Shown in pieces: positions 2,079-22,063 of a stretch of 27,415 bases of DNA. This DNA comes from a virus. The notes beneath the pieces were generated by a model. That model made no database searches and was not told the DNA's origin. It saw only the letters and a list, made by a program, of their open reading frames with translations. Made by a program: the position numbers and the translations under genes. Every line of letters begins with the position of its first letter. Position 1 is the first letter of the stretch. Where the stretch lies: positions 1 through 27,415 of IMG/VR virus record IMGVR_UViG_3300035698_012834. One strand, written 5' to 3'.

Positions 2079-2093
2079 AATATATATCACTAT
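2079..2093 (+). promoter_or_regulatory. AT-rich motif before homing endonuclease 1, shared with endonuclease 2
   Basis: The 15 bases AATATATATCACTAT run directly into the start codon of the LAGLIDADG gene. A copy with one mismatch lies at 25600-25614, upstream of the second homing endonuclease gene. No Shine-Dalgarno sequence is present here. A phage promoter element or simple AT-rich chance similarity are both possible. Confidence 0.25.
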
Positions 2094-3156
2094 GGAAAAG
2101 AAAAAATGGACAAAACAAGAAAATGATATAATATATCGCGATTATTTAAAGAACCCGTATATATCTAATCTTCTTCCTGGGAGAACTGAAGAGACTATTA
2201 GATGCCAAGCGTGGAAGTTGGGAATAACAAAAAGTAATAAAAAACCCAAATGGTCTAAAGACGAAGAAGATTTTATTAGAGAAAATTATTTGAATTTATC
2301 GCAAAAAGATTTTGCTGAAATTATCCCAGGAAGAAGTTGGAAAGCTATTAGGCTAAAAGCTTGCTCGCTGGGATTTAAAAAACAAGAACCAGGCAAGTTT
2401 TCAGATCTGTCTGTTCTTCTCGAAGAGAATCCAATTGCATATTACTGGATGGGATTTTTATTAGCAGATGGCCATTTTGCTAAATACTCTATCAACTTAG
2501 GCTTAGGTGAGCTTGACGTCGACCATGTTGGTAAATTTCGTAAATATATCAGTTATATTGGAGAGGGAGTTGATAAATGTAGATTTTCTGGTTTTGATAA
2601 AGAAATAGTTCCTCAAATAAATGAGAAGTTTAATTTAAATAGCAGAAAAACTTATAATCCACCAGGTATAAAATGGATAAAAAATAAAGATTTATTGTTA
2701 AGTATGATAATTGGTTTTATAGATGGAGATGGTTCTATAGGAGAGTTTGACACTAAATCAGAAGGAATTAAAAATTGGCTTAGAATAAAAGTACATCTAT
2801 CTTGGCTTGATAATTTGAAGTATTTTTATTATTTTCTATATAGGTACTCTGGTTTTATTTTAAAAAAGCAAGCATCAGGGCCATCTATAACTAACGACGG
2901 GTGGGCATTACTAAGCTTATATGACAACGACGTTTTAGCATTTATGAAAAGAAAAATTATAGAATTAAATTTGCCAGTTCTTGATAGAAAATGGGATAAA
3001 GTAGACGAAAATCATGTATCTCAAATAGAAAGAGAAAGAAAAATATGGCCTAATATAAAGGAAATGCTAGATAATAATATATCCAAATATGAAATATCGA
3101 GAAAATTTAATTTTTCAACTAAAGTGTTACGTAGAATTATCAGAGAAAACTGTTAG
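2092..3156 (+). CDS. Free-standing LAGLIDADG homing endonuclease with Myb-like DNA-binding repeats
   Basis: This 354-residue protein carries two LAGLIDADG-type helices: YWMGFLLADG at residues 118-127 and SMIIGFIDGDG at 204-214. The acidic residues near the ends (D126, and D211 or D213) are the expected metal ligands, so it should be a single-chain double-strand endonuclease. Upstream lie two Myb/SANT-like repeats (about 5-45 and 54-95), each with a W, an acidic helix, a PGR turn and a KA.SLG-type third helix. The C-terminus (about 318-352) looks like a helix-turn-helix. It sits between the spike gene and the baseplate genes and is not inside a recognisable intron. There is no Shine-Dalgarno sequence before the ATG, unlike its neighbours. 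Its TAG stop forms part of the ribosome site of the next gene. The protein probably spreads its own gene by cutting phages lacking the insertion; this is inferred from the family. Confidence 0.88.
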   Translation: MEKKKWTKQENDIIYRDYLKNPYISNLLPGRTEETIRCQAWKLGITKSNKKPKWSKDEEDFIRENYLNLSQKDFAEIIPGRSWKAIRLKACSLGFKKQEPGKFSDLSVLLEENPIAYYWMGFLLADGHFAKYSINLGLGELDVDHVGKFRKYISYIGEGVDKCRFSGFDKEIVPQINEKFNLNSRKTYNPPGIKWIKNKDLLLSMIIGFIDGDGSIGEFDTKSEGIKNWLRIKVHLSWLDNLKYFYYFLYRYSGFILKKQASGPSITNDGWALLSLYDNDVLAFMKRKIIELNLPVLDRKWDKVDENHVSQIERERKIWPNIKEMLDNNISKYEISRKFNFSTKVLRRIIRENC

Positions 3157-3501: not shown

Positions 3502-4080
3502 ATGGCAGCAGATTATGAACAAAAAGAACTAAATAAACCAGAACAGTATGATAGTTGGTTTAATCCTGTTCAGACTAGAGCAGAATATGAGTCTGATAAG
3601 CTGTTTGAAATAAAAGGTTTTCCTTTCCCAGTAGACAGAGAAAGTAAAAGAGGTTTTTTTTATAAAGCTGTTAATCATGAAGTTATAAAGTCGGATCTTT
3701 TACAACTTCTTCTTACTGAGCCGGGGGAAAGAGTTATGCTTCCTTATTTTGGTACAGGTTTACGAAGAATGATGTTTGAACAAAAAGATTCGTTATCTGG
3801 CGATGAAATGAGGTCGTTGATTATTGATGCTATCGCTAGATGGGAACCTCGAATAGTTGTACACGAAGTGTCTGTGAAGTTTGGTGATGCCGGAAGAGAT
3901 TCTCGGTTTGCTTCTAAAAATCCACAACAAGATCCTCATGACAGCAGAGTGATTGTTCCTGGAGATAATGTTGATACTAATTCTTTTATAGTTAGGATTG
4001 TATATTCATTAAAGAATGATCTTGAAGGAATAGAAAATTTAGTATTTAGAATAAATTATAACGAACCAATTTTAAATTAG
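3502..4080 (+). CDS. Baseplate wedge protein, T4 gp25/P2 gpW-like
   Basis: The 192-residue product matches the GPW_gp25 family by its core at residues 60-125: a helix with DLLQLLLTEPGERVMLPYFGTG, then LRRMMFE, and an IARWEPRI strand leading to VHEVSVKF. In T4 this protein joins the sheath to the baseplate wedge with gp6 and gp53. The N-terminal 35 residues are polar and precede KGFPFPVD, the usual family entry. An insertion of about 30 residues (129-158, rich in D, R, N and P) separates the two C-terminal strands and makes the protein longer than typical 130-residue members. It starts two bases after the upstream gene and ends nine bases before the gp6-like gene, the conserved order in contractile tails. 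Confidence 0.9.
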   Translation: MAADYEQKELNKPEQYDSWFNPVQTRAEYESDKLFEIKGFPFPVDRESKRGFFYKAVNHEVIKSDLLQLLLTEPGERVMLPYFGTGLRRMMFEQKDSLSGDEMRSLIIDAIARWEPRIVVHEVSVKFGDAGRDSRFASKNPQQDPHDSRVIVPGDNVDTNSFIVRIVYSLKNDLEGIENLVFRINYNEPILN

Positions 4081-4089
4081 GAATAAAAA

Positions 4090-5676
4090 ATGGCACAAAG
4101 CATGCAAAATAGACCAGAAAATCCATTCAAAAATCCAAAACCTTTTGATATTGGTGAAATAATCGGGACACCAGATCTCAAAAATATTTCATACACATCA
4201 TTTGATTTCTTTGCTATTAAAGAAAGAGTTATTGAGTATGTTAAGAAATATTTTCCGAATGATTACAATGATTTTGTTGAGTCTGATCTTGGTATTATGC
4301 TTATAGAATTATGGGCATATATGGCAGATTTAATATCATTCAAATTAGATCTTTATTCGAACGAAGTTTTTATCGATACTGTTTCTCAAAGAAAAAACGC
4401 TCACAGAATAGCACAGTTAGTAGGTTATCCAGCAAGATCACCAAGACCATCAACCGCTCGTATTTCAGCCACACTTGGCGGACCATATGATTTTGATATA
4501 AAGATCAATCAAGGATATTTTGTATCTTTGACGTCTAGAGACGGAAAACCGCTTAATTTCGAACTTTATCCAGCTGATGAAGAATGGAATCCTTTGCTCG
4601 GAGAAGATATTATTATCCCAGCTGGATCAACAACAAATCTATCAGTGATAGGAATAGAAGGAACTTCTGCTACTACATCTTTTACTTCTGATGGTAGTAG
4701 ATTCCAGTATTTCCAAGTAGGAAATGATAATGTATTAGAAGGATCCACTGTCGTTCTTGTCAATAATCAACGATGGATAGAAGTAGATTTTTTTACCGAT
4801 GTAGATAATGGTCCATATTACAAAATAGAATATAACGAAAATTATAGAGTTTCAATTTTATTTGCAGATGATAGTAAAGGAAAAATACCTCCTAATGGAG
4901 CAGATATTGCAGTTAGTTATCGTTATGGCGGAGGAGAGAGAGGAAATATTGACATTGGATATTTGAATCAAATAGCTAATGTTACAAGTGATTTAGTTCC
5001 AGGACCTGTTCCCGTAACATTGACTAATTACACTAAAGGCGAAAACGGGGAAAACGCAGAAGATATAAGCGAATTGAAAACAAAACTTCCCTTGTGGGTA
5101 AAAGCACAAAACAGAGCCGTGAGCGGAGAGGATTATTCCTTCTTAGCAGAAAGTTTTTCTACTCTTTATCATGGAAGAATAGGAAAAGCTAAAGCAATTC
5201 TCAGGAATAGCGGATGTTCTGGAAATATTATTGATATTTACGTATTACAGTTTGATTCAGGCAGCTCGCTTATTACGGCTAATAATACTCTTAAAAGAGA
5301 GTTATCTACATTTTTTGGTTCTAAAAAAATGCTTACCGACTTCATTTGTATAAAAGACGCTTCTCAGGTTTTTCAAAATATAAATATCAATTTGACAGTA
5401 AACAAGTTTTATTCTGAGTTTAAAAAAGATATACATGACAAAACATTGGAAACAGTTAATGATTTTTTTAGTCTAGAAAAATGGTTCATCGGACAACCTC
5501 TAAAAAAACACGATTTGATTCAGTATTTGAATCAAATACCAAATATAGTTTCTAAAAGTGTAGAGCTTACGTATAATAGTCAAAATTTAGTTACAGATCC
5601 GGATTCAGTTGTAGTTGATTTTTGGAAGATTATTAGACCAGGTAATATTAATATTAGTATCGACACGGTTGATTAA
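4090..5676 (+). CDS. Baseplate wedge protein, T4 gp6/baseplate J-like
   Basis: The 528-residue product shows the baseplate-J plan. An N-terminal helical segment (about 60-115) contains ESDLGIMLIELWAYMADL and a following RIAQLVGY. A beta module at about 222-285 has VNNQRWIEVDFFTD, FADDSKGKIPPNG and YRYGGG. A helix at 340-356 reads QNRAVSGEDYSFLAE, matching the RAV..EDY signature of the family. The C-terminal part has alternating strands and helices (about 430-528). In T4, gp6 forms the dimeric core ring that links wedges. The ribosome site AGGAAT follows from the stop codon of the gp25-like gene. The TAA stop is two bases before the next start, so translation is probably coupled. Confidence is high. 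Confidence 0.9.
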   Translation: MAQSMQNRPENPFKNPKPFDIGEIIGTPDLKNISYTSFDFFAIKERVIEYVKKYFPNDYNDFVESDLGIMLIELWAYMADLISFKLDLYSNEVFIDTVSQRKNAHRIAQLVGYPARSPRPSTARISATLGGPYDFDIKINQGYFVSLTSRDGKPLNFELYPADEEWNPLLGEDIIIPAGSTTNLSVIGIEGTSATTSFTSDGSRFQYFQVGNDNVLEGSTVVLVNNQRWIEVDFFTDVDNGPYYKIEYNENYRVSILFADDSKGKIPPNGADIAVSYRYGGGERGNIDIGYLNQIANVTSDLVPGPVPVTLTNYTKGENGENAEDISELKTKLPLWVKAQNRAVSGEDYSFLAESFSTLYHGRIGKAKAILRNSGCSGNIIDIYVLQFDSGSSLITANNTLKRELSTFFGSKKMLTDFICIKDASQVFQNININLTVNKFYSEFKKDIHDKTLETVNDFFSLEKWFIGQPLKKHDLIQYLNQIPNIVSKSVELTYNSQNLVTDPDSVVVDFWKIIRPGNINISIDTVD

Positions 5677-5678: not shown

Positions 5679-8600
5679 ATGATTATTCAGACAACTTATG
5701 AAAACTTACAGATTGGAGAAACTGCCAGAATATATCTGGAAATAGACGATCTAGTTAACTCGTCTGGCCAACCAGAGCATCTAGGAAGAATAGATAAAAT
5801 TTTAATCGAAAGATTAAACAATAGCCACTTAGAACCAGATAAAATAAATCAGACAGTTCGTAACGTACTCGGCCCTCAATCTGCATCTGTTGTTTTAGAT
5901 TCGAATGATTCGACAACTAATTTTCATAATTATAACAATGCAAATAGTGCTAGAATTAATTTTACTGATGGATATTTTGTTCATGTAATATCTCCTTCTG
6001 CGATAGAAGGATATTACGAGATTAGAGACATACCAATTGAATTTTATGATTCAGACAATCAGCCAGTAGGAAAAGAATTGATTATCTCTGGTATATTTTC
6101 TTCTATTACAGAGGAAATAGTAGATTTTCACATAGTTGATTCAAATTATTTAAATGTTACTTCTGCTCCGTTCGAAAATGGAAGTATATTGTTTAATAAC
6201 GATGAAGAATTTATGGAACCAGTATGGAAAAAAGATGGTTTCTTCTTTGAAGATTTGAATAAAAATTATGACTTTGGTTCAATATCTAATTTTGATACTT
6301 GCACACTCCAAGTTACGATAAGTGGAACTACATATTCTTATCCATGTGGAAGAATATACAATACTGAATCTAATATTGATTATTCATTCTTTATTATAGG
6401 ATTTGATGAGCCAAGTGGTTATGAACAAAACTCTGTTATGTCGTGGGTAGTTAAAGACGCAAGCGGAAATACCGCAGTTAATGGCGCTCTTCTAAGTGCT
6501 ACTGGAAACAATGGTGTTATACAACCTTTTTATTATTCTCCAGTTAAAATCGATAGTTTCACGAATAGTGATGGCGAAATATTATATAGGTATTATTACG
6601 ACTGGCTGATAGAAGACTCTCTATTTAATGGAGAAGGAACATATCTAATTTATTGGTATGTCAGACGACAAGGTACTATTATCTTATATAATGAAATTTT
6701 TAGTAAAAATTATTTAGTCCACAATGATTTCGATCTTCCGGAGACTTATACGAGAAATTTCAATAGAGAAAATTACCATGAGTTACTAAAAACTTATCTT
6801 CCATTTTTTTATTTAGATTATCAAGCTGATGATGTAATAGATGAAACATTAAGAGCATTTGGAGAAAGTATTTATGATTTCCAACTAAAAGTCGATCAAT
6901 TTCTAAATTTGATAGATCCTAAAAGAATAAAAGTCAGTCTTCTTCCATATCTATCAAATTTGTTTTCTTATAATTTAAAAGGAAATGATATTGTAAGCTG
7001 GAGACAACAGTTAGATAATATTCCAAAACTTCTTAAAAGAAAAGGAACTATGGATGGACTTACAGAGCTTTTAGCGCTTATGTCCACAACTGTAAAAAAC
7101 GTTACGTTTTACTGGCAAGTTAGATCCCCATATCTATGGACTGATTATTTCTTTTTGACGAACAATAATACTATCACTGCGGAGTCATATGATTTGGGTT
7201 ACGAGCCAATAGTTCAATTAACAGGAGCGTCACGTACTTTAGATTTTTCTAGATTTTTGATAGAGTATTATTCTCAAGAACAATTAGCCTGGTATAATTT
7301 ATCTTACGATGATACCGGAACAGTTATCAATGAATTCCAAAGTCTAATAGACCTAAGTTTTTCTGAGAGAAAATCACAATACAATATTTATTCCAAAACT
7401 ATAAAGTGGAATTTGAATGATATTACAAGAAATCAAGTATTTGTTAGATATGAAGATGTAGGGTCGATCTTTTATGATAGTGATTTCGATAACAATTTAG
7501 TAAAATATCGAATTCATATAAAGTCTGGAGATGTAAAACATGGTCTATATGAGTTTGATCAGATAGATATTGATGATACGAAAACACAATCTTTGTATGA
7601 TGTTATTAAATTCAGATTGAGATACATAGAAGACGCGAGTGCTCTTATTAATGAAGATGAAAATATCAATATAGAAAAACAAATTATATTTAGTATAATC
7701 CAAGGAAGCGACGAGCTTGATAATCCTCTTGAGAATTATGTTGATCTAAGAGGGTCTATTGTAATCGAAGAACAAATTATCAAATCAGTTACTAATTTGA
7801 ATGGTAAAATTAGAGGATACAACTTGTCAACAACTACAATAGGGACATTTACTCCTCAGGCCAACGACGTGTTGAAGATAAGATATCAATATAAGGATTA
7901 TCCATATGAAATAAATTCTTCGAGCCAAGATTATCTTACTAATTTTGATAATTACGAATTATGTAAAGACGATTACATACTTTCACTTCCACTATCTGAC
8001 AGTAGATCTCCTTACGATAGTTTATATGCAAATAGTAGAGTTATTCCTCCCGTCAATTATAATATTAGACTGCTTCCTGACACAACATGTTTCGTTGCAC
8101 CAACTGACGAAATAGATGAATTCAATTGTTTATCTAAATATGAAGTTTGTGATTTATGCGCAACTAGAAATCCATTAGATAAACCAGTTATTTTTGGTCA
8201 TATCAGGACTAAACTCCCGTGGTCTGAAAATGTCTATAATATGGACGAATATGATGGTTCTACTAGACCATCATATGAACCGTGCGATATTGACGAAGAC
8301 TTTCTCGATAAGTGTTCTTGTTGCTGGAGTTCACAGTTCTCTATATCAGTAGAAGCTAATAAATTATCAAATAAATCTTTAGAGTCTATTCTAGAGGCGA
8401 TTGATGAATTCAAGCCTTTCCATTCTCAGTTGAAAACGTTCTCTTATACAGGATCTTTTACTGATTATTGCCATATCGATGATTTAGATTATAATTTTGA
8501 ACTCAAACAAAGTTATAAAGATACTTTCCTTATTAGCACTTTTAATCCATATCAAGGAAATACTAATAACAGATCTGATTGCTATAATTTTGCAGAAGGA

Positions 8601-10634
8601 ACATTTTCTACAGAATTAAGTGATTTGAAAGAAGGCGTTGTTCTAAGAGATAGCGAAGGTAATTTTAATCAGTTTGGAGTTGGAAAGAGAAATGATAATA
8701 TTGTTCTTCCGACATTTTATAATGTTGTGCGCTCGAGAGTAGTAATAGAGTCACCTGCCGGATCAATTCATAGTGGAAATATATATAACGTTGGAGTTAT
8801 TGGAAATAAAGAGATACAATTACTTGACGATACTAGTATTACACCAGGAGGAGAGACGGGCGATAATGTTGATAATATTCCAACCACTTTTCCTTATTCA
8901 TATGAGGGTCCATGGGCATATAGTATTTATAGCAGAAAATTTCCTATAAGTATTGAAACGCATGCTAGTGGATGGCCTGAAGATACATCGATAAATGTTA
9001 CTATTACTAAATCTGGAAAATATGTAATTTCAACTAATGTTGGACTTTTAGAAAATGGATTAGAATTGATTTCTACCAAGTCAAATCCTACTAATGTTTA
9101 TCGAGTAATCATTGAATCTGGCGCTCAGGCTGGAACATATAATATTTTAGATGCCCAGTCTAATTCTATTGTTCTTTATGATTATCAATATGGAGACCCG
9201 TTTGGTTCTAACCTTACGTTCTCTATAACAAGAAATGGAGTGCTTATTGACGGATTGTCATCTATTACTGGAACACTGGGCAGAGAAGAAGTTTATGGAA
9301 ATTTTACATATGCTGGGTCAAATGATATTATGACCGAGTGGGATATAGACAATGAGATCGCATATGTCTGTATTAATAATGGTACTTATTATCCAATAGT
9401 CGAAACAATTCCTTCTACTGGATCTGGAACCCAAGTAAAATTCAAGAATTATTCTTCAGGTCCAACTGGAAGCAATCGAATATCTATATTTGAAAAAAGA
9501 TTTTCAAGTTCAACTGGATATATTACATCTTCTACGAACGTCATTCATGTTCCCGCTGCCGGGACAGGTTCTGTTGATTTATATAATTTGATTCACAATA
9601 CCACAGAGAATGAAGATAGGATCAACGATCTCCTAATTGGTTTGTATTTGAATGGATTTTGGAGATATTATGGCGTTGAAGAAATATATTCAAGCGATGT
9701 TAATAAGATAAAACTTAGAGGTCTTGCAATAGACGAAGTTGTTACTGGGCAAGATTTGAGAGTTAGAATATATGAATTAACAAGTTATAAATCAGGAACG
9801 GTAAGACCGATGGTTAGTTCTGGTCTTTATGATATATTAGAAGGAACAGCTGATTTTGGTTCTAGTGCTACTATACTAATAGATGCAGTTACTAATTTTA
9901 CAACTAGTCATGTAGAAGAAGGAGACATTATTTATAATATTACTGATGATAGTTGGTCAATAGTAACATCTGTAGCAACTAATACTCTTGGTTTTTCTGC
10001 ATTAGTTCAAAACGGGGTAGCAGGGAGCGCATTTGCTGACGGAGAACAATATAGAATTATAAGAAGAACATTATATGATTATAATGTTTTTGGAAACGAT
10101 CCGGTTCATCAATATACTCAAAATATCAGTTTCGAAAGTTATAACCATAGCGGTATTGATTATGTTTTAGTTGGTTCTACTGGAGAATCTATTAAAGAAA
10201 CAGATCTTGATAATTTGCAAAGACAATTTGGCACATATAGGACTATTGACAGTGTCGAAGGATCACAGTTTAGTATTGGGGTATCTGTAGGAAGTAATTT
10301 TAATATTCTTCCTAGTACATTTAATGTATATGTAAATAATCATTTGTGGAAGAAAGTAGATTTTTGGACAGATCCAGAAGAAAAACCACTTCAAATAGGT
10401 CTACAAGAATTTATGGTAGAACAAAAATCATTTCATGACGTAGTTGTATGGTTTGGAGATAATTTTACAGGCAAAGCACCGCAGCCAGGAGATTGGATTA
10501 GAATAGATTATAACTATAAAGGATTCGAAAGAGACCCTAGTGTTCCTGAGTATGTTTACCAAAAAGAAAAAATATATTTTGAAATCTATGATGTAAATAC
10601 AGATAGTGCTCAAAGGATCTATCTGTATTCATAA
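5679..10634 (+). CDS. Giant baseplate wedge protein, gp7-like with tail protein I domain
   Basis: At 1651 residues this is the largest product here, well above T4 gp7 (about 1030). Residues about 363-483 resemble the P2 tail protein I domain: LKTYLPFFYL, a helix ending in DQFLNLIDPKRI, LLPYLSNLF, then LLKRKGTMDGLTELLALM. The rest is mostly beta modules. Nine cysteines fall in residues 762-882, including CDLC at 824-827 and CSCC at 879-882, suggesting metal binding or disulfides. A module at about 1385-1470 has TADFGSSATILIDAVTNF. The end (about 1549-1614) repeats the VNN.W..VDF.TD module of the gp6-like protein. The place directly after the gp6-like gene supports a gp7-like role linking wedge core and periphery. 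The peripheral modules may carry fibres; that is inference. Confidence 0.8.
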   Translation: MIIQTTYENLQIGETARIYLEIDDLVNSSGQPEHLGRIDKILIERLNNSHLEPDKINQTVRNVLGPQSASVVLDSNDSTTNFHNYNNANSARINFTDGYFVHVISPSAIEGYYEIRDIPIEFYDSDNQPVGKELIISGIFSSITEEIVDFHIVDSNYLNVTSAPFENGSILFNNDEEFMEPVWKKDGFFFEDLNKNYDFGSISNFDTCTLQVTISGTTYSYPCGRIYNTESNIDYSFFIIGFDEPSGYEQNSVMSWVVKDASGNTAVNGALLSATGNNGVIQPFYYSPVKIDSFTNSDGEILYRYYYDWLIEDSLFNGEGTYLIYWYVRRQGTIILYNEIFSKNYLVHNDFDLPETYTRNFNRENYHELLKTYLPFFYLDYQADDVIDETLRAFGESIYDFQLKVDQFLNLIDPKRIKVSLLPYLSNLFSYNLKGNDIVSWRQQLDNIPKLLKRKGTMDGLTELLALMSTTVKNVTFYWQVRSPYLWTDYFFLTNNNTITAESYDLGYEPIVQLTGASRTLDFSRFLIEYYSQEQLAWYNLSYDDTGTVINEFQSLIDLSFSERKSQYNIYSKTIKWNLNDITRNQVFVRYEDVGSIFYDSDFDNNLVKYRIHIKSGDVKHGLYEFDQIDIDDTKTQSLYDVIKFRLRYIEDASALINEDENINIEKQIIFSIIQGSDELDNPLENYVDLRGSIVIEEQIIKSVTNLNGKIRGYNLSTTTIGTFTPQANDVLKIRYQYKDYPYEINSSSQDYLTNFDNYELCKDDYILSLPLSDSRSPYDSLYANSRVIPPVNYNIRLLPDTTCFVAPTDEIDEFNCLSKYEVCDLCATRNPLDKPVIFGHIRTKLPWSENVYNMDEYDGSTRPSYEPCDIDEDFLDKCSCCWSSQFSISVEANKLSNKSLESILEAIDEFKPFHSQLKTFSYTGSFTDYCHIDDLDYNFELKQSYKDTFLISTFNPYQGNTNNRSDCYNFAEGTFSTELSDLKEGVVLRDSEGNFNQFGVGKRNDNIVLPTFYNVVRSRVVIESPAGSIHSGNIYNVGVIGNKEIQLLDDTSITPGGETGDNVDNIPTTFPYSYEGPWAYSIYSRKFPISIETHASGWPEDTSINVTITKSGKYVISTNVGLLENGLELISTKSNPTNVYRVIIESGAQAGTYNILDAQSNSIVLYDYQYGDPFGSNLTFSITRNGVLIDGLSSITGTLGREEVYGNFTYAGSNDIMTEWDIDNEIAYVCINNGTYYPIVETIPSTGSGTQVKFKNYSSGPTGSNRISIFEKRFSSSTGYITSSTNVIHVPAAGTGSVDLYNLIHNTTENEDRINDLLIGLYLNGFWRYYGVEEIYSSDVNKIKLRGLAIDEVVTGQDLRVRIYELTSYKSGTVRPMVSSGLYDILEGTADFGSSATILIDAVTNFTTSHVEEGDIIYNITDDSWSIVTSVATNTLGFSALVQNGVAGSAFADGEQYRIIRRTLYDYNVFGNDPVHQYTQNISFESYNHSGIDYVLVGSTGESIKETDLDNLQRQFGTYRTIDSVEGSQFSIGVSVGSNFNILPSTFNVYVNNHLWKKVDFWTDPEEKPLQIGLQEFMVEQKSFHDVVVWFGDNFTGKAPQPGDWIRIDYNYKGFERDPSVPEYVYQKEKIYFEIYDVNTDSAQRIYLYS

Positions 10635-11135: not shown

Positions 11136-12563
11136 ATGGCATTAGTATTACCATCAATATCATTAGATGAAAATGGCAACCTGCAAGTAGGAGCAGGAAC
11201 TGAAATTGACACTAATTTTAGCGAAATAAAAAATAAAGTTAATCCATTATTTACAGATGTCTTAAATCTGCAAACTTCTTGGAATGGTTCATTTGAGACA
11301 TTAAGTGAGTTTACTTTAAATTTTCCTTCTAGTCCATCGTTGCCTGGAGGAGGAACATCGGGTCCATATCCAACAGGCGTATATCTAAAAAGTTCTGCAG
11401 TTCAACCTTTTACGATTGACTTAATAGAAGATAGTAGTTTATTTGTTAAAATGACTTTGCAAGAAAGATCATTTGTTGAATCTATTATCGATACAGATAT
11501 ATCAAGCTTCAAAATGAAGGTTGAAAATAATTCGGAAATCAATGAAACAATCAAACTTGTATCTGGTCAAATGATTACTTTGAGCCAGCTGTATGTTGAT
11601 AATGAAATTCAAGTTAAAATTGATGCATCAATTCCCACAGAATATTTTAGAACAAGTACTTATTCTGTCATTCCAACGAAACCAGATCCAAGCAATCTTT
11701 ATAGATATAAAATTTCTACAAGCGCATATATTTCCGGAACTCTAAGAGTATATGTTAACACGCATAGAGTTCCTAATAATTTAATTGATCAAAGTTTATC
11801 AAGTATTGGAGAGTTTTATTTTGTAAATACACTTCCTTTATCTGAACTTCCATCAGGACAAGATGATATTGTTTATTGTGATTTTGAAAACCCAATTATT
11901 GTTAGCCCATTAGAAGCATCGGCAAGTGATTCGACATTAGCTAAATGGTGGGGAGATATTTACACCGCGTCTGACGGAAGCGTTGTTCAGCCAACATCAG
12001 AATTACAACCTTTGAGATTTTATGCCTTGTCAGGCGATTTTTCAGCATCAGCTGGATATAATGCTAGTCAAGATTTATTCCGTATTGTTTCAGCTAATCC
12101 TTATACGGATGTTACAGGTTCTGTTGATAACGGTATGGAAACTGTATTCTTTATTTTAGATACTAACAAAATAGATCACGATCAATTAGAAAACTGGACA
12201 TTTAGTGCCCACCACCCAATAGGTTATGATAACCAAAATATGTGGTACAAAATAGTTGGAACAGATGCAAGTGAAGTTATTCCAAATTCTACGCAGACAA
12301 ATCTAACATTTTCATCAAGTGATGCGAGTGTTACCGCGGTGATTTCTGGATCTACTATAAATCTTGTTGCTTCTGGGTCAAGTTATTTTACTAGATCGGT
12401 TGGAATAATCAAACCAACAATAACCACTGATGATTTGGCTATATATTCAAATAGAAGATTCTATTTTGACGGAGGAACGAATACATATGTAACCTATGAC
12501 TCTGGAAATAGTAGATATGAATTTTTTATCGGTGGAGCTAGCGTGGGTCAAATGGGAGTTTAA
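11136..12563 (+). CDS. Putative tail fibre or baseplate-attached protein, 475 residues
   Basis: The product is rich in Ser, Thr and Asn, beta-rich, and lacks catalytic motifs. The start (MALVLPSISLDENGNLQVGAGTEI, then NFSEIKNKVN) resembles N-terminal attachment regions of phage fibres. The C-terminal 40 residues (RRFYFDGGTNTYVTYDSGNSRYEFFIGGASVGQMGV) match the short strand pattern often seen at the ends of fibre or appendage proteins, where a DGG.NTY motif is followed by a GGA strand. AGGAGAG precedes the ATG, and the gene overlaps nothing. It lies immediately upstream of the repeat fibre gene, so it may connect that fibre to the baseplate. The structural role is inferred from context and composition. 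Confidence 0.65.
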   Translation: MALVLPSISLDENGNLQVGAGTEIDTNFSEIKNKVNPLFTDVLNLQTSWNGSFETLSEFTLNFPSSPSLPGGGTSGPYPTGVYLKSSAVQPFTIDLIEDSSLFVKMTLQERSFVESIIDTDISSFKMKVENNSEINETIKLVSGQMITLSQLYVDNEIQVKIDASIPTEYFRTSTYSVIPTKPDPSNLYRYKISTSAYISGTLRVYVNTHRVPNNLIDQSLSSIGEFYFVNTLPLSELPSGQDDIVYCDFENPIIVSPLEASASDSTLAKWWGDIYTASDGSVVQPTSELQPLRFYALSGDFSASAGYNASQDLFRIVSANPYTDVTGSVDNGMETVFFILDTNKIDHDQLENWTFSAHHPIGYDNQNMWYKIVGTDASEVIPNSTQTNLTFSSSDASVTAVISGSTINLVASGSSYFTRSVGIIKPTITTDDLAIYSNRRFYFDGGTNTYVTYDSGNSRYEFFIGGASVGQMGV

Positions 12564-12575: not shown

Positions 12576-15293
12576 ATGGCATTTTTTAAAACAAATAAAG
12601 GTTATTTGATATACGGTGGCGGGACTTTTGCTCTCTGGGAAGATGGCGGTCTTATATTTGGAAAAGCTGCTACTGGTGGAACAATTACCTGTGGAGCATC
12701 CGGACAAGACAGAGGATCTTTTGCCGGCGGAGTTATTACTACTACTGGCGGAACGATTATAGCTGATGCCGATGGATCTTTCGCTATTGGAAAAGTAACT
12801 TCTGGTACAATTAGATCTGGCCTAGGAGGAATGACCCAAGGAAATGTAACAACCGGATCTATTCATACAACTAGTGGACCTGGATCGCTTGCACAAGGAG
12901 TAGCAAAGGCAGGTCAAATTTATTCTTCTGGAAAAGGTAATTTCGCTCAAGGGTATATTACATCTAATCAAAAAATACAAGCTTCCGGAAACGGAAGTTT
13001 TGCTCAAGGATATACAATTGCCGGAAACATTGTGTCTTCAGGGTTAGGCTCTTTTGCGCAAGGAGCAAGTGCTGCTAATGCAACGGCCTCTGGACATGGA
13101 TCATTTGTTCAAGGCAACGCAGCTAATACTATGACAGCCGGTGGATATGGATCATTTGTTCAAGGTAATGCAGCAAACGCAGTAATGACTACTTCTGCAG
13201 CTGGAACATTTATACAAGGCAATGCTGCTGGAGGATCAATAACTTCTTCTAGTTCTGGATCTCTTTGTCAAGGAGCAACCCGTGGAACAGCGACTATTTA
13301 TGCTAATGGTATTGGTTCTATGGCTCAAGGATATACTAGTGGCGCTGGAAGTATAAACTCCCAAGGCGAAGGTTCTATTGCTCAAGGAAATGCTTCTGGA
13401 GGATCAATATATGCTTATACACATGGTGCTTTTGCTCAAGGAAAAGTAGGTTATTCAGGGTTTATTACAGCAAAAAATCTTGGAACATTTGCTCAGGGAA
13501 ACGCCGGAACAAGCGGAGAAATAAGCGCTATATCTAAAGGTTCTTTTGTCCAGGGACATACTTTGACAGGATCTATCTATTTAGGTGGGACAACTGGTAA
13601 TTTTGCTCAAGGATACACACTTTCTGGAGATATTGGCATTGCGTTTGGAAGTGGTAGTTTTGTGCAAGGAAGTGTTACTGGTGCTGGAAAAATATATACT
13701 CAGGGATTCGGATCATTTGCTCAAGGGTTTACTTCGAGCGGAGAAATAAATGCAGTACAATCAGGGACATTTCTTCAAGGCAGATGCGGTACAGGAAGCA
13801 TATTTTCAAGTTCAAGCGGAACATTTATCCAAGGGTACATATCTGATGGAGTAACAGCAACAACATCCGCGTACGGAGGAATGATACAGGGAAATTTTAT
13901 AGCGAGTCCAACGGCAAGTGGTATAGGTTCATTCATTCAAGGGGCAGCGACAAACACCGCGGGAATTATGACCGCTAGTGGATCTGGTTCTTTTGCACAA
14001 GGCAGAGCTTTAGGTCCTTTAACTGCAAGTGCTTTTGGTTCATTTGTTCAGGGGGCGTCAACAAATACTGTAGGAATTATGACCGCTAGTGGATCTGGTT
14101 CTTTTGTACAAGGCAGAGCGTCTGGAGACATGATTGCGTCGGCGTCTGGTTCTTTTATACAGGGAAGAACAAATTCTTCGTTGTCCTCAATGACCGCTAC
14201 CGGCGGTGGTTCGTTTGCGCAAGGACAAACTATCGGAACAAATAGTTATATGACATCTGGTACCGGAGCATTTTCACAAGGAATAATCACTGGAACTGGA
14301 TATATTAAATCAGTTGGTCCCGGAACCATGGTTCAAGGGTCTATAGCTAATGGATCTATTTCGGCGGCATTGGCCGGAGCATTCGCGCAAGGATATGGAA
14401 CTACTGGAAGTTTATATTCAAAAGGAAAAGGATCATTCGTACAAGGGCACGTAACAACTGGAAGTTTATATTCTAATTCTGGTTCCTTTGCTCAGGGATA
14501 TACTGCCGGAGGAACAATTAGTGCGTCTAACCAGGGTTGTTTTGCCCAAGGATATACTAAAACAACTGGAGATATTTATTCTGTTGGAAATGGATCATTT
14601 GCCCACGGGTATGCAAATACTGGTAATATTACAGCAACAGGTGTCGGATCGATTGCAATGGGAAGATGCTATGATGGAACAATAGTAGCAGGAGCAAATG
14701 GATCTTTCGCTGCCGGATGGGTTGCAGCAGGAACAATTACAGGATCGGCTAAAGGATCATTTGCACATGGATATACTAAAGCTTCTTCAGATATTTCCGC
14801 AAGCGGCCTTGGATCATTCGCTCAAGGATATATGGCCGATGGAATTCTTCATATGACTGCTTCTGATTCTGGTTCTTTTGCTCAAGGATGTTCTCTTTCT
14901 GGTCGTATTCAAGCAAGCGGAAAGGGTTCATTTGTTCAAGGATATTCTGATACAGGAAACCTAGATTCTACCGGTGCAGGTTCGTTTGTACATGGATTTG
15001 CATCTGGAACTGGAGCTATAGTAGCTGTTGCACAAGGATCATTTGTACATGGATTTGCTCCTGTTGGTACTGTATTGACAGCGAATGCATACGGTGCAAT
15101 TCTATTTTGTCATGGTACTTCAGCTACTAACAGTGTTGCTCAGTCGCTACAGGTTGGACCTGATGGAACTCAAATAAGAATCGTTGGAGGCGGAGCCGCG
15201 CCTGTGGCTCCTAGAAATGGAGATTTTTGGGTAGATTCAGGCAATGTATTTGTTAGGTCTGGTGGATCTAGTATAAATATTTCTAGTCTCTAG
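12576..15293 (+). CDS. Long repetitive fibre/adhesin with about 43 GSFAQG repeats
   Basis: After a 45-residue Gly-rich start (MAFFKTNKGYLIYGGGTF), residues 47-847 consist of about 43 units of 17-20 residues. The consensus is G-S-F-(A/V/I)-Q-G, four variable residues, often G, a hydrophobic strand, then a Ser/Gly turn. In the last third Q is sometimes H, M or A (GSFAHG, GSIAMG). Such regular strand-turn units with conserved Gly are expected for a beta-helix or beta-roll, comparable in style to YadA-type adhesin heads. The last 60 residues (VGPDGTQIRI, then PRNGDFWVDSGNVFVRSGG) look like a C-terminal fibre tip or trimerisation segment. There is no signal peptide, as expected for a virion protein. 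ATGGAG precedes the start. Receptor binding is inferred; the repeat architecture is seen directly. Confidence 0.82.
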   Translation: MAFFKTNKGYLIYGGGTFALWEDGGLIFGKAATGGTITCGASGQDRGSFAGGVITTTGGTIIADADGSFAIGKVTSGTIRSGLGGMTQGNVTTGSIHTTSGPGSLAQGVAKAGQIYSSGKGNFAQGYITSNQKIQASGNGSFAQGYTIAGNIVSSGLGSFAQGASAANATASGHGSFVQGNAANTMTAGGYGSFVQGNAANAVMTTSAAGTFIQGNAAGGSITSSSSGSLCQGATRGTATIYANGIGSMAQGYTSGAGSINSQGEGSIAQGNASGGSIYAYTHGAFAQGKVGYSGFITAKNLGTFAQGNAGTSGEISAISKGSFVQGHTLTGSIYLGGTTGNFAQGYTLSGDIGIAFGSGSFVQGSVTGAGKIYTQGFGSFAQGFTSSGEINAVQSGTFLQGRCGTGSIFSSSSGTFIQGYISDGVTATTSAYGGMIQGNFIASPTASGIGSFIQGAATNTAGIMTASGSGSFAQGRALGPLTASAFGSFVQGASTNTVGIMTASGSGSFVQGRASGDMIASASGSFIQGRTNSSLSSMTATGGGSFAQGQTIGTNSYMTSGTGAFSQGIITGTGYIKSVGPGTMVQGSIANGSISAALAGAFAQGYGTTGSLYSKGKGSFVQGHVTTGSLYSNSGSFAQGYTAGGTISASNQGCFAQGYTKTTGDIYSVGNGSFAHGYANTGNITATGVGSIAMGRCYDGTIVAGANGSFAAGWVAAGTITGSAKGSFAHGYTKASSDISASGLGSFAQGYMADGILHMTASDSGSFAQGCSLSGRIQASGKGSFVQGYSDTGNLDSTGAGSFVHGFASGTGAIVAVAQGSFVHGFAPVGTVLTANAYGAILFCHGTSATNSVAQSLQVGPDGTQIRIVGGGAAPVAPRNGDFWVDSGNVFVRSGGSSINISSL
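12714..15118 (+). repeat. Degenerate tandem repeat array inside the fibre gene
   Basis: Units of about 51-60 bases encode the GSFAQG motif, written mostly as GG(A/T)TC(T/A)TT(T/C)GC(T/A)CAAGG. They vary at synonymous positions and in spacer length, so most copies are old. Two stretches are nearly identical: 13962-14008 and 14073-14119, 47 bases with one difference. Confidence 0.85.
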
Positions 15294-15309: not shown

Positions 15310-15477
15310 ATGGCAAACAATTATGAAAAAATACCAAAAATACAATTACAGGAAGAGAAAATAAAAATTCTCCATGTAATAGCAAAAATAAATTTTAAAA
15401 TAACTGGGTCCGTAAAGAGAAAAGCAAAACTTCAAGTACGACTAGATCAGATTAACGCAATTCTTCTAACATTATAA
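15310..15477 (+). CDS. Small basic protein, 55 residues
   Basis: This short frame begins MANNYEKIPKIQLQEEK and ends RLDQINAILLTL. It is rich in Lys and Ile and has no membrane segment; the C-terminal half may form an amphipathic helix. Support comes from a strong Shine-Dalgarno sequence, TAAGGAG, 9-15 bases before the ATG, and from its place directly after the fibre gene stop, 16 bases apart. The function is not recognised. Possible roles include a small fibre-associated or assembly factor, but nothing in the sequence shows this. It is followed by a hairpin 16 bases after the stop. Confidence 0.6.
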   Translation: MANNYEKIPKIQLQEEKIKILHVIAKINFKITGSVKRKAKLQVRLDQINAILLTL

Positions 15478-15779: not shown

Positions 15780-15820
15780 ATTAATATTCTCATCTATATT
15801 GTATAGATGAGAATATTAAT
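15780..15820 (+). promoter_or_regulatory. Perfect 19-bp hairpin covering the glycosyltransferase start codon
   Basis: ATTAATATTCTCATCTATA (15780-15798) is the exact reverse complement of 15802-15820, with only TTG as loop. The ATG of the next gene (15807-15809) and its first codons lie in the right arm, and no Shine-Dalgarno sequence is present. In a transcript that enters from upstream the start codon would be buried. Five A residues flank the left arm, so read from the minus strand the stem is followed by TTTTT and resembles an intrinsic terminator in that direction. Confidence 0.65.
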
Positions 15821-18800
15821 AATATCATTTCCAAGTCACAAAACATTTATTGGCGGAGAAGATCAGGTTGCTCAGACATTGCTATACGAGTTTACAAGTC
15901 TTGGTTGTAGTGCTTCTATTTGCAATAGAGATAATTATGATTATACAGAAGAATACAATTATGATTTAATTTTCTCTTTAAATCATCCTGTAAAAATTAT
16001 TCAAAAAAGAAATTCTATATGGGCAACATGGCTATTTAATGAAAATATTGGACAAACAATTGATGAAATTAAGAATAATAACTATGACATTTTTTTCGTA
16101 AACTCAAAATTTGTTAAATCACAACTTGCTGCGCAAGGATATAATTCTGTTTTTCTTCCTTTTCCATCATTTGATTATTACTTTAGAAAAGAACTACTTG
16201 TTCATCCAGATAATAAAAAAACAGATATTATCTATTTAGGAAATTATAATCCAGAATATAAGTCGTTTGATAAAATCAATAATTATTTGATTCCATGTTT
16301 AAATTATGATTTTGAAATTTATGGTGGAGAAAAATGGTTGCTTCGGGAACAAAAAAAACTCTATAACAAAGGAATTTTTCAAGCAGAAAATTTTTGCGAA
16401 GCTTATGAACATTATTATAAAGGTGTTTTCCCAATAGAGAGATGTTCTAATATATCAGATTACTCGAAAATATTTATAAATTTCAATTCTCCTAGTCAGA
16501 TAAATCTACAAATGATTAATAATAGAATGTTTGATTTACTCAGTAACGGATGTTTTATTATTACCGACGACGATGGCAATCAAAGAGAAGAATTCGGAGA
16601 TTGCGTAGAGTATAGTTGTGGAGGAGAAGATTTGAAAGACAAGATAGATTATTATCTATCTAATCCCGATGTGATTTTTGAGAAACAAAAGAAAGCTTTA
16701 GAGTTTGCTAACAAGCGTATTGAAAAAATATCTTACGCAAAATTAGCTAAATCAATTGTTGATTATGTCACTAAAAATAAAGAAATAATTATTAATGATC
16801 GAAAATCTAACATTTTTCTTTTTGCTGTTATTGTTAATAATATAAATTTACTAAGTAATTGTATTAGATCTATTAGTAAAACAAATTTTGATCAAATCAG
16901 ATATCGGTTTTATGTTTCCAAGAATAATAGAATACATGCGACAAGAATCATTAACAATAATTTTTCCGAACAAGACTATGAAATAGTTATTATAGATTGC
17001 GACCCTCTTGAATATAGAATTTCATATTCAGATATTGGTTTTAAAGGTATAATAATTCCCACATACTCTAACATGATTTATCCTGAAAGTTTTTGTAGAA
17101 ACATATATGAGATGTTTCAAGAGAATGAATATTATGATATTATAAAGTTCTCAGTTATTGATTGTTCTGATTATCAGAAAAAAATATTTGGAATTAGTGG
17201 CGATAAAACGTGCGCCGATGATGACATGGATTATTTTGTGCCGTATGGATTTTATGCCGTTAATTATAGAAATAAACTTTCTACAAATCATTCTAATATA
17301 AATTGGAATGATTTGTCTAAAGAAAACGAGATTAAACAAATAAATTGTTCGCCAAACATAATTTTTGAAACAGAAAGTCAAAGAAAAAAGTTTGTTACTA
17401 AAAATTATGAAGAAATTATAGAATCATTATCTAAAAAAAGCAATAAACAAGAAACTAATTCTACAGGAACGAATAAGATAAATGTTCAATCTTTACGGTT
17501 TTCTGTGATTTCATTAGAAGAAGTAAAAACTCAATATAGCAATATCGAGAGTATCATAATATCAAATGATAACATAGAAGAAATTATAAGAAAACTAGAA
17601 AGTCATTATACTATTATTTGTTTTAAAGAATTAAATTTTGATTTACAAAATGTAGCTGATATTATAATTTCACATATGAATTATGATTCTTTTCTTGTAG
17701 GAGATTCATTATTCATAAAAACAGCATTATTATACCAATGTTGTCCATCGAATAATTTATTGAAATTAGGTAATAGTATTTTATCAGACAAGCAATATAG
17801 TTTGATGGTAGTCAATCCTAAAACATGTGATATAAAAATACTTCGCGATGATAATTTTATACCTAAAAAAGAAAATGGTCTCAAAATAGCTGTTTTATCA
17901 ATGTGTGGAGTGTCTTCATATGAAGATAGATATGGAATTGGTGGTGAACATCAGGTTATTCACTGGTTGAAAAGTTCATTTGAAAAAAGAGACGATGTTC
18001 AATTGTGCCATATATTTGATACATATAATTATGATCTTATGAACATAGATGAATATGATATAATATTTTCTAATTCATGCTGGAGAAGTATAGAACATAA
18101 AAGAAAACGTACAGATAATTTAACTATATTTTGGCATTTTAATATGGATTCTGGAAAAGCTACAATGGACACTATACTTAGATTGAATTATGATTGGATT
18201 TGGACTAACTCGTATATTGGATATGATTATTTTAAATCGAAAGATGTGAAATGTATGATGAAACAATTAAATGCATCCTCTCAATATCATTATCCATATC
18301 CGTATAAATCTAAACTTTATCTTGGAGATACGGTGTATATTGGCGGGTACCAAATTCATTATAAAGGTAAGGAATTAATAGATAAATTTATAAAACCTTG
18401 CTGTAGAAAAGAATTTGATTTTGCAATATATGGAAACAGATTATGGAAAGCTGAAGTACAAAAACAAGCATTATCAACTGATTTATATTTCAAAGAAGAA
18501 TATTACGACGAGTCTTTTGAGCCTCATTATAAAAAAATATTGCCAATGCAGGACTTCAATATTTTAGCTAAGAATACAAAGATATGGATTAATTTCAACG
18601 CAGCCACGCAACAAAAAATGCAGATGGTGAATGACAGGCCCATTTGGTCTCTTGCTTGTGGAGCTTTTGTTATTACCGATGATGTCGTAGCGAATAGAAG
18701 ATTCTTTGATGGAGATAACTGTCCGGTCGTGTTTTCGACCGGAGGAGATGACTTAATAGAAAAAATTAGATACTACCTAGACCATGAAGATAAAAGATTA

Positions 18801-18923
18801 GAGATTGCATCAAGAGGTCCAGATTTTATAAAGAAAAACAAATTATATACAGACGATACTACAAGCCAGGTTATGGATTTATATTACAGTGAAATTAAAA
18901 ATAAAAATAACTCACAAATTTAA
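15807..18923 (+). CDS. Double CgeB-like glycosyltransferase, 1038 residues
   Basis: The protein has two homologous GT-B halves around a different centre. The N-terminal half (about 1-320) starts MRILIISFPSHKTFIGGEDQV and contains FINFNSPSQINLQMINNRMFDLLSNGCFIITDD. The C-terminal half (about 692-1030) repeats the plan: LKIAVLSMCG, YGIGGEHQVIHWL, WINFNAATQQKMQMVNDRPIWSLACGAFVITDD, then GGDDLIEKIRYYLDHEDKRLEIASRG. That last stretch is the Glyco_trans_1_2/CgeB signature. The middle (about 335-540) begins FLFAVIVNNINLLSNCIRSI and has IIDCDPL, resembling a decayed GT2 fold. It should transfer sugars from a nucleotide donor; the acceptor is unknown. It could be a virion protein, phage DNA or a host glycan. 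The start is fixed by the GT-type N-terminus although no ribosome site is present and a hairpin covers the ATG. Confidence 0.82.
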   Translation: MRILIISFPSHKTFIGGEDQVAQTLLYEFTSLGCSASICNRDNYDYTEEYNYDLIFSLNHPVKIIQKRNSIWATWLFNENIGQTIDEIKNNNYDIFFVNSKFVKSQLAAQGYNSVFLPFPSFDYYFRKELLVHPDNKKTDIIYLGNYNPEYKSFDKINNYLIPCLNYDFEIYGGEKWLLREQKKLYNKGIFQAENFCEAYEHYYKGVFPIERCSNISDYSKIFINFNSPSQINLQMINNRMFDLLSNGCFIITDDDGNQREEFGDCVEYSCGGEDLKDKIDYYLSNPDVIFEKQKKALEFANKRIEKISYAKLAKSIVDYVTKNKEIIINDRKSNIFLFAVIVNNINLLSNCIRSISKTNFDQIRYRFYVSKNNRIHATRIINNNFSEQDYEIVIIDCDPLEYRISYSDIGFKGIIIPTYSNMIYPESFCRNIYEMFQENEYYDIIKFSVIDCSDYQKKIFGISGDKTCADDDMDYFVPYGFYAVNYRNKLSTNHSNINWNDLSKENEIKQINCSPNIIFETESQRKKFVTKNYEEIIESLSKKSNKQETNSTGTNKINVQSLRFSVISLEEVKTQYSNIESIIISNDNIEEIIRKLESHYTIICFKELNFDLQNVADIIISHMNYDSFLVGDSLFIKTALLYQCCPSNNLLKLGNSILSDKQYSLMVVNPKTCDIKILRDDNFIPKKENGLKIAVLSMCGVSSYEDRYGIGGEHQVIHWLKSSFEKRDDVQLCHIFDTYNYDLMNIDEYDIIFSNSCWRSIEHKRKRTDNLTIFWHFNMDSGKATMDTILRLNYDWIWTNSYIGYDYFKSKDVKCMMKQLNASSQYHYPYPYKSKLYLGDTVYIGGYQIHYKGKELIDKFIKPCCRKEFDFAIYGNRLWKAEVQKQALSTDLYFKEEYYDESFEPHYKKILPMQDFNILAKNTKIWINFNAATQQKMQMVNDRPIWSLACGAFVITDDVVANRRFFDGDNCPVVFSTGGDDLIEKIRYYLDHEDKRLEIASRGPDFIKKNKLYTDDTTSQVMDLYYSEIKNKNNSQI

Positions 18924-20338: not shown

Positions 20339-20899
20339 ATGCCCGAGTTTGATGAATTGGTTCAAAAAATTAGTAATGAAATACGGAATGAACCACATGG
20401 ACACTCTGAATTTCAAATTAGAAACTTTATCATAGGCGCACAACCCACGATATATGGTAAATATAAACAGTGTGTGTTAGAGTTAAGGTCGAGAACTAAA
20501 AATTATAAGATCATTAAAGAAAGATATGATAAGATACGACTTAAAGAAGAATTGTCTTCAGATGAAATTAAACAGGTATCTGAATATGAAATTTTGTTAG
20601 AAGATATAAAGAGAGAAACATATATAATAAGTGATTTGTATAGAGAAATTAAGGAGGATATTGATTTAAATCATAGAGATGAATTAGAAATAGAATATTG
20701 GGACGCAAAATTCGGTCAAGAAGTTGCGACCTATAAAATTTCAGGATATCCATTGCCTGTTAACTTAATCCAAAATATTTTGTCATTACCAAATTCGTGT
20801 CGAACAAAGCAACTTTTGGTTCAATCGCTAAAAGAAAGCAAGAAATCAGGGGAATTATCACATGACTCACAGAGAAGTCTTACAGATAGACCAAACTAA
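20339..20899 (+). CDS. Hypothetical coiled-coil protein, 186 residues
   Basis: The product is highly charged and mostly helical. Residues about 45-112, dense in K, E, R and I with heptad-like spacing, could form a coiled coil. No enzyme motif, signal or membrane segment is visible. The start has AAAGGAG seven bases upstream. Its 3' end overlaps the next gene by 38 bases in another frame, and that gene has its own AGGGGAA site inside this one, so the two are probably translated together. It is the first gene of the adhesin block and may be an assembly chaperone or a rod segment. That is a guess from position and shape. Confidence 0.65.
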   Translation: MPEFDELVQKISNEIRNEPHGHSEFQIRNFIIGAQPTIYGKYKQCVLELRSRTKNYKIIKERYDKIRLKEELSSDEIKQVSEYEILLEDIKRETYIISDLYREIKEDIDLNHRDELEIEYWDAKFGQEVATYKISGYPLPVNLIQNILSLPNSCRTKQLLVQSLKESKKSGELSHDSQRSLTDRPN

Positions 20900-22055
20900 T
20901 TACACAGTTGGTGATCTCTCGTATTTTCCAAATGAATTAGATGATAACATTAGCTTGTATGATACCGAAAACAATGCAATTTCTGTTCTTACTGGAAAAA
21001 TTTCTGTTAATTCTGAATCTATTTTCGTTAATGATAATGGTTTATTTCCTAATCAAGGAATTCTTCATATAAATGATGAGTCTATTTATTATAAAACCAA
21101 AGCAATTAATATGTTTACAGATTTGATTCGTGGTTTTAATAACTCTAAAATCATGTCTCATAATTCTGGAAGTGTTGTTCTTGGATGCATTTCTTCATTA
21201 CATCATAACGGTGTTAGAGATGCAATTATTAGGTGTGAACAAAAAACAGGTCTTATGTCAGACTCTCCAGACATTAATGGAACTCTTACAAGTAGAGCGA
21301 AATTTTTAGATATAAAATGGTTTACTCCCACGGCAAGATTTATCGCTCTTCCTACGAAAGGTGCAGCTCCTTTAACAGTCAACTTCAGAAGCAGATCATT
21401 AGGAGAACCTTATATAGAAGGGAATTCCAGTTGGGATTTTGGTGATATAAACAATTCAGAAATTTCTTCAGCAAAACATCCCACTCACGTATATGAAAAA
21501 CCCGGAATATATACTATTACATTAAACGTACGCACAAATGATGGCAAAAATTCATCATTGAGCAAGAAAGATTATGTAGAAGTTTATGATGATTTAACTG
21601 TTTGGAATATTGTTGCTTATGCAAGAGATCCTGTTACAAAAGCAAAACTATCTATTAATGAAAATGGAATCCCGCTTTATTCAAACGAAATTCCGTTGGA
21701 AGTTGAGTTTATTGATCAAACATTAGGAGCCGTAATAGCTAGAAAATGGAATTTTGGAGATGGAAATATAGTGGATGTTAATACTCATGCATATGACCAT
21801 ATTATAACTCATACTTACACTGAACCAGGAGTATATTGGCCGCAATTACAGGCATTAGATCAAAATGATACTTTGCGATTATATTCATTCAAACAACCTG
21901 TTTTCGTTGGTCTAAGAAGCGTAGCTGATATAGATGAGTTGATAGTAGGAGCATCTATTAATGACAGCAGGTTATTGTCAAAAAGATTTATAGATTCTTC
22001 TAAACACTTGAAAGATGCGATAAACAATTTAGATAATTCTATAGTTATCAAATAG
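20862..22055 (+). CDS. Virion surface protein with shared N-terminal module and two PKD domains
   Basis: The first 130 residues carry a module shared with the next two genes: GILHINDESIYYKTKA, FTDLIRGFNNS (85-95), SLHHNGVRDAI (112-122) and ending E-x3-G at 126-130. Two PKD-type Ig-like domains follow. The first (about 156-242) has GAAPLTVNF, WDFGD at 191-195 and HVYEKPGIYTITLNV at 209-223. The second (about 247-350) has IPLEVEF, WNFGDG at 296-301 and HTYTEPGVYW at 317-326. PKD folds usually present or space binding domains on surfaces. The C-terminal 50 residues are helical and polar. AGGGGAA precedes the start inside the upstream gene. It is probably a baseplate or fibre component; the ligand is unknown. 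Confidence 0.75.
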   Translation: MTHREVLQIDQTNYTVGDLSYFPNELDDNISLYDTENNAISVLTGKISVNSESIFVNDNGLFPNQGILHINDESIYYKTKAINMFTDLIRGFNNSKIMSHNSGSVVLGCISSLHHNGVRDAIIRCEQKTGLMSDSPDINGTLTSRAKFLDIKWFTPTARFIALPTKGAAPLTVNFRSRSLGEPYIEGNSSWDFGDINNSEISSAKHPTHVYEKPGIYTITLNVRTNDGKNSSLSKKDYVEVYDDLTVWNIVAYARDPVTKAKLSINENGIPLYSNEIPLEVEFIDQTLGAVIARKWNFGDGNIVDVNTHAYDHIITHTYTEPGVYWPQLQALDQNDTLRLYSFKQPVFVGLRSVADIDELIVGASINDSRLLSKRFIDSSKHLKDAINNLDNSIVIK

Positions 22056-22063
22056 GTATTGAT

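What the first reader, a model, noticed from the sequence alone, without database searches (positions are those of the whole stretch)
12576..15293. A fibre built from about 43 GSFAQG repeats
The sequence directly shows a 905-residue protein in which about 43 units of 17-20 residues share the G-S-F-(A/V)-Q-G core. The Q is conserved to an unusual degree and shifts to H, A or M only near the C-terminus. A ladder of identical residues every turn suggests a stacked beta-helix with a Gln or His spine. This resembles YadA-head design, but with a different core motif. It may be a new phage fibre fold or a metal or ion-binding spine.
Basis: partly seen in the sequence, partly recalled or inferred. Interest (0 to 1): 0.72.

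Follow-up and report, generated by a model that had tools for sequence, protein, structure and literature searches.

The report
Phage fibre of 43 GSFAQG layers
A virus of bacteria makes a long fibre from 43 near-identical short repeats that most probably stack like the head of the bacterial adhesin YadA, but with a glutamine where the usual greasy core residue sits; it is a new variant of a known kind of fibre, not a new fold.

Summary
In detail: window 12576-15293 encodes 905 aa with 43 contiguous layers of 17-20 residues built on G-S-F-(A/V/I)-Q-G. Q is present in 35 of 43 layers and H in 4. It lies downstream of baseplate genes, so it is most likely a tail fibre. It has no Pfam, PHROGs, NCBIfam, PDB or named-phage match, but I found about 13 relatives in viral contigs and one in a bacterial genome. 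They form a bridge: the window's 18-mers match 15-mer GSFAQG proteins (tblastn E 5e-19; profile E 2e-15); one 15-mer protein passes into YadA-type 14-mers within one chain; and a related cap motif closes a strong Pfam YadA_head protein. [quoted passage not shown] A polar core is already solved in BpaC; the Gln ladder is the new part. Trimer and handedness are inferred: AlphaFold2 gave a confident solenoid resembling right-handed beta-helices, a known AF2 bias, so the fold is not settled. Nothing supports metal binding. New variant of a known kind.

The parts
12576..15293 (+). fibre gene, 905 aa
   Evidence: ORF and translation
12576..12713 (+). N-terminal 46 aa, presumed attachment segment, with a possible degenerate first layer at residue 24
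   Evidence: function inferred
12714..15092 (+). 43-layer GSFAQG repeat array with the linker to the cap (residues 47-839)
13910..14164 (+). recent duplication of a two-layer unit (111 bp period, 76-84% matches)
15093..15293 (+). C-terminal cap (residues 840-905) related to caps of the relatives: ...SLQVG...IRI..GAAPVAPRNGDFWVDSGNVFVRS...
   Evidence: alignments A1 and A3
11136..12563 (+). preceding ORF, 475 aa, 12 bases upstream; probable fibre or baseplate-attached protein, no family match
   Evidence: role inferred from position
15310..15477 (+). 55-aa ORF just downstream of the fibre; candidate fibre-assembly factor, no family match
   Evidence: role is a guess from position
5679..10634 (+). 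1651-aa protein with a weak Tail_P2_I match (context)
   Evidence: E 0.005, below cut-off
4090..5676 (+). baseplate wedge subunit (context)
   Evidence: phrog_219 E 5e-32
3502..4080 (+). gp25-like baseplate wedge protein (context)

Best explanation
It is a contractile-tail phage fibre whose shaft is a homotrimeric YadA-type left-handed parallel beta-roll. Each of the 43 layers is one turn of each chain: strand 1 is G-S-F-A-Q-G (YadA positions 3-8), then a turn enlarged by 3-5 residues, then strand 2 (x-I-x-A-S-G, about YadA positions 11-1). Phe at position 5 and Gln (or His) at position 7 face the other two chains, so three Gln per layer stack in register along the threefold axis and hydrogen-bond to each other and to buried water, clamping the chains in register over about 43 layers (about 20 nm at 4.8 A rise). 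The ends are closed by layers with non-polar position 7 and a C-terminal cap. The fibre carries host recognition at its tip or along its loops. Shown: the repeats, the position after baseplate genes, the family, the stepwise sequence bridge to YadA-type repeats and the related cap. Inferred: trimer, left-handed roll, Gln facing the axis, water network, receptor binding.
For: Window to 15-mer GSFAQG proteins: tblastn E 5e-19, 36% over 479 columns including the C-terminus; profile-profile 98.5%, E 2e-15, against 0.19-0.71 for shuffled controls, with the gap placed after strand 1. 15-mer to YadA-type 14-mers: profile E 4e-4, controls 0.07-0.5; the L031/L042 protein runs from GSFAQG 15-mers into SFALG-type 14-mers in one chain and passes the Pfam YadA_head cut-off in one search but not in another (14.6 of 25 bits). 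L060 is a strong YadA_head protein (165 bits) and ends with the family's cap motif QFGPGTNALANSF. L035 mixes 15-mers with 18-20-mers carrying the same kind of turn insertion. Layer numbering and core positions 5 and 7 from BpaC/YadA (PMC9543794). Glycine at position 8, invariant in solved rolls, is present in every layer. Trimer: in L005 the repeat block lies between collagen blocks, and collagen is three-stranded (general knowledge). Baseplate neighbours.
Against: No direct match of the window protein to YadA_head and no significant direct profile match to 14-mers (E 0.36). Layers are 17-20 and not 14-15 residues. AlphaFold2 (pLDDT 87, pTM 0.86) built a single-chain solenoid closest to right-handed beta-helices (Z 13.8 Ag43b, 13.5 Dettilon tailspike), and no left-handed roll appeared among the hits. 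The 15-mer control model also failed to match one. AF2 is known to give confident false beta-solenoids for repeats (PMC11795689), so this is weak evidence either way.
Confidence: 0.6

Rival explanations
1. Single-chain beta-solenoid (right-handed, pectate-lyase or Ag43 type): each chain closes its own helix and the Phe and Gln ladders are buried inside it, like the Asn ladders of pectate lyases. The fibre may or may not trimerise afterwards.
For: AF2 model of residues 580-905 with pLDDT 86.9, pTM 0.86; Z 10-14 to right-handed beta-helices over 210-270 residues. 18-20 residues a turn is nearer to these than to a 14-residue roll.
Against: AF2's documented bias; sequence bridge to YadA repeats and related cap; no PDB match by Foldseek at E below 1.
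Confidence: 0.25
2. The Gln/His ladder is an ion- or metal-binding spine on which stability or function depends.
For: Regular Gln with His tending to follow the Gln block in several members (permutation p 0.005, members not independent).
Against: Gln is a poor metal ligand (general knowledge); in BpaC's polar core the buried sites hold water and K+ did not replace it.
Confidence: 0.06
3. It is a head fibre or decoration protein and not a tail fibre.
For: In relatives L007 and L010 the homologous gene lies among head genes: after the major capsid gene, and right after the portal gene. The cap weakly resembles a crAss001 capsid chain (7qof_l, not significant).
Against: In the window the gene follows gp25-like, wedge and Tail_P2_I-like genes.
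Confidence: 0.15
4. Low-complexity, disordered repeat without defined fold.
For: Gly, Ser, Ala and Thr make up over half of the residues.
Against: Strict layer spacing, glycine in every layer and conserved alternation kept across diverged relatives and with different codons.
Confidence: 0.04

Closest known systems
YadA-type left-handed parallel beta-roll heads of trimeric autotransporter adhesins (Pfam PF05658 YadA_head)
   Same: core G-S-hydrophobic-A-x-G in register, Gly at position 8 in every layer, A/V/I at position 6, cap motif shared by the family and the YadA_head protein L060
   Different: 17-20 residues a layer against 14-15, Phe at 5, Gln/His at 7 against Ile/Leu/Val; window protein has no Pfam match; phage fibre without autotransporter barrel
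BpaC C-terminal head (PDB 7o23)
   Same: long roll with polar residues at position 7 near the threefold axis; the roll structure hit by the 15-mer relatives (E 0.013 and 0.65)
   Different: N/S/T at 7 and T/S at 5, 14-mers; here Q at 7, F at 5
'YadA domain-containing structural protein' of cyanophages and a pelagiphage tail fibre with a C-terminal YadA-like domain (PMC9146016, PMC3909814)
   Same: YadA-like domains already reported in phage structural proteins
   Different: no GSFAQG-type relative of the window protein found in 50,697 named phage records
Right-handed beta-helix tailspikes and Ag43
   Same: AF2 model superposes with Z 10-14
   Different: no sequence link; model type is subject to known bias

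Membership tests
YadA head (PF05658) / left-handed parallel beta-roll | match to the Pfam model | tested here: not met
   window protein 0 families at E 1, 0 matches at E 10; relative L060 met, L031/L042 met only
YadA head (PF05658) / left-handed parallel beta-roll | Gly at position 8 in every layer | tested here: met
   unbroken chain of layers all with Gly; the search pattern itself asks for Gly, so the unbroken spacing is the test
YadA head (PF05658) / left-handed parallel beta-roll | 14-15 residues a layer | tested here: not met
   17-20; relatives L031/L035 mostly 15
YadA head (PF05658) / left-handed parallel beta-roll | Ile/Val core at positions 5 and 7 (canonical subtype) | tested here: not met
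   F at 5, Q at 7; the BpaC subtype also breaks this rule
YadA head (PF05658) / left-handed parallel beta-roll | small residue at position 6 | tested here: met
   A 23, V 11, I 5, C, L, S of 42 tallied; V/I are larger than the usual Ala
YadA head (PF05658) / left-handed parallel beta-roll | left-handed roll in the structure | tested here: inconclusive
   AF2 model nearest to right-handed helices; 15-mer control did not match a left-handed roll either
YadA head (PF05658) / left-handed parallel beta-roll | homotrimer | not testable with these tools
   only single chains can be predicted; collagen flanks in L005 are indirect
phage tail fibre | gene in the tail/baseplate module | tested here: met
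phage tail fibre | present in virions at the tail | not testable with these tools
   needs mass spectrometry or EM
right-handed beta-helix | superposition with solved members | tested here: inconclusive
   Z up to 13.8, rmsd 3.2-5.6; model bias known

The most novel reading that the evidence does not exclude
A distinct, previously undescribed subtype of trimeric beta-roll in which more than 30 consecutive layers of three Gln (ending in His) run along the threefold axis as a hydrated polar zipper, with Phe packing around it, used as a long phage fibre shaft.
Probability: 0.45. Interest if true: 0.55.

Novelty: new variant of a known kind. Interest (0 to 1): 0.4.

Why it matters
It would link YadA-type adhesin heads to a family of environmental phage fibres not covered by the family libraries searched, and give a second, much more regular example of a polar core in this fold. 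A natural series from Ile/Leu to Gln cores, within single chains, makes the question of how such rolls stay in register without a hydrophobic core testable.

Tried and rejected
Single-protein locus scan found no relative; degenerate three-layer DNA patterns did. Several pattern hits were chance or other repeats (5-residue periodic L018, L026, L034; also L003, L012, L013, L016, L025, L036) and were set aside. PDB sequence profiles gave nothing useful (a pneumococcal surface protein and a MORN repeat at E 0.27-1.6, rejected). The PHROG tail-fibre match of L058 (phrog_8443) was not reproduced in the genome search and not in the window, so I do not use it. BLAST absence from named phages is not due to filtering: the same kind of search, scaled to that database size, finds the relatives at E 3e-4 to 5e-19. 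The 55-aa ORF as a gp57A-like chaperone has no support from family searches. AF2 structure as proof of fold: rejected because of the published bias; left-handed rolls were absent from the fold-search lists for both models, which is not evidence that the folds differ. The closest phage by baseplate protein, LR756511 (595 kb), has no GSFAQG pair.

Full report
Observation. Window 12576-15293 (+) is one ORF of 905 codons. The repeat is real: 43 consecutive layers at residues 47-826 with spacing 17 to 20, far above chance (33 strict cores, shuffles mean 0.10; 12 three-layer DNA matches, shuffles 0). The fifth core position is Q in 35 layers, H in 4, and G, I, M, A once each. Exact GSFAQG and GSFVQG cores are all spelled with different codons, which points to selection on the protein; one two-layer duplication of 111 bp is recent.

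Context. Upstream lie a gp25-like protein, a baseplate wedge subunit and a 1651-aa protein with a weak Tail_P2_I match, then a 158-aa ORF and a 475-aa ORF ending 12 bases before the fibre. Downstream are a 55-aa ORF and a 1038-aa glycosyltransferase-like protein. The best baseplate match in named phages is the 595-kb uncultured phage LR756511 (37%), so the window is probably a piece of a large myovirus (inference).

Relatives. The protein has no match in Pfam, PHROGs, NCBIfam or PDB sequences nor in 50,697 phage records. Degenerate DNA patterns over viral and bacterial contigs and a cap search brought in L002, L005, L006, L007, L010, L014, L020, L022, L023, L031/L042, L054, L058, L059, L060 and the bacterial-genome locus L035 (Kiritimatiellaeota B1221). 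Apart from L060 (YadA-type 14-mers) and L031/L042 and L035 (mostly 15-residue GSFAQG layers), these carry GSFAQG-type layers of about 17-28 residues. Most share the cap NSxQFGPGTN...SLQVG..IRxKG..GAP...NGDFWV...VYVRSNGVS. The window cap keeps the second half of this clearly (SLQVG, APRNGDFWV, VFVRS); its first half is degenerate.

Bridge to YadA. The window protein finds L035 at E 5e-19 and 36% identity through its last residue. Tandem profiles of window 18-mers and L031/L035 15-mers match with E 2e-15, against 0.19 to 0.71 for shuffled or column-permuted controls, and the alignment places the extra residues just after strand 1. The 15-mers match the 14-mers of L060 at E 4e-4 (controls 0.07 and above), but the window 18-mers do not directly (E 0.36). 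The L042 protein runs from GSFAQG into GSFALG and YSFTLG 14-15-mers inside one chain and reaches Pfam YadA_head's cut-off when neighbours are summed in one search, though a plain scan gave 14.6 of 25 bits. L060 is an unambiguous YadA_head protein (165.5 bits) that ends with the family's cap motif. The link is therefore stepwise, not direct.

What the numbering predicts. In the solved BpaC and YadA rolls the layer is GxNSVAIGAxSxAx; positions 5 and 7 contribute to the trimer core, 7 nearest to the threefold axis, and Gly 8 is invariant (PMC9543794). GSFAQG maps onto positions 3 to 8, so Phe is at 5 and Gln at 7. BpaC already shows that position 7 can be polar (N/S/T) with buried water and high stability, and that potassium does not replace the water in simulation. 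In several members His follows the Gln block toward the C-terminus, and the last cap layers have F, I, V or M at 7 (permutation p 0.005 for His after Gln, members not independent). A collagen block on either side of the repeats in L005 is indirect evidence for three chains.

Structure prediction. AF2 on residues 580-905 with 14 rows gave pLDDT 86.9 and pTM 0.86, superposing on right-handed beta-helices with Z up to 13.8 while Foldseek found nothing below E 1 in the PDB. AF2 is reported to make confident false solenoids from repeats (PMC11795689). A control on L035 (pLDDT 84, two strands a layer in most of the chain) matched no left-handed roll of the YadA kind and only weak mixed helices. So structure prediction leaves handedness and oligomer open; only single chains could be predicted.

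Verdict. Best reading: trimeric YadA-type roll with a Gln/His axis, serving as a tail-fibre shaft (0.6). Main rival: single-chain beta-solenoid (0.25). Not a new fold on present evidence; a new variant of a known kind. No paper in the held library prints GSFAQG, GAFAQG, GSFVQG or FAQGYA, which is only a weak test of novelty.

Noticed in passing
L005:561-4634 (-), from a 527-kb viral contig: GSFAQG repeat block and cap lie between two long collagen-like blocks in one 1358-aa protein.
   Followed up: partly
window fibre model, residues 580-905: Foldseek in the viral library lists giant-virus collagen-like and serralysin-like proteins (TM up to about 0.5, 22-26% identity, E 0.01-0.2); could be the same kind of repeat in giant-virus fibrils or only a shared AF2 solenoid.
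   Followed up: no
L002:209-1045 (-) and L042:2143-3063 (+): In two different contigs an ORF beginning with LPRSGSTLLC (sulfotransferase-like start, from memory) lies downstream of the GSFAQG fibre gene.
   Followed up: no
window 15807-18923: 1038-aa protein with two Glyco_trans_1_2 stretches follows the fibre gene; might modify fibre or host surface sugars.
   Followed up: no
window 2092-3156 and 25635-26717: Two homing-endonuclease-like genes (LAGLIDADG-like/D5-like, and NUMOD3 with DUF559) inside the structural gene module.
   Followed up: no
L058:540-3086 (+): One open frame joins a head-closure protein domain at its start to SAHVH-type fibre repeats and a GSFAQG block with cap.
   Followed up: no
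cap of the family (e.g. L002, L020, L022): In the last two layers Gln sits at position 6 and F/I/V at 7 (NSFQIG, QFGPG), the reverse of the shaft layers.
   Followed up: partly
window 20862-24382: Two adjacent proteins with PKD domains, one also matching wedge and tail-fibre PHROGs.
   Followed up: no
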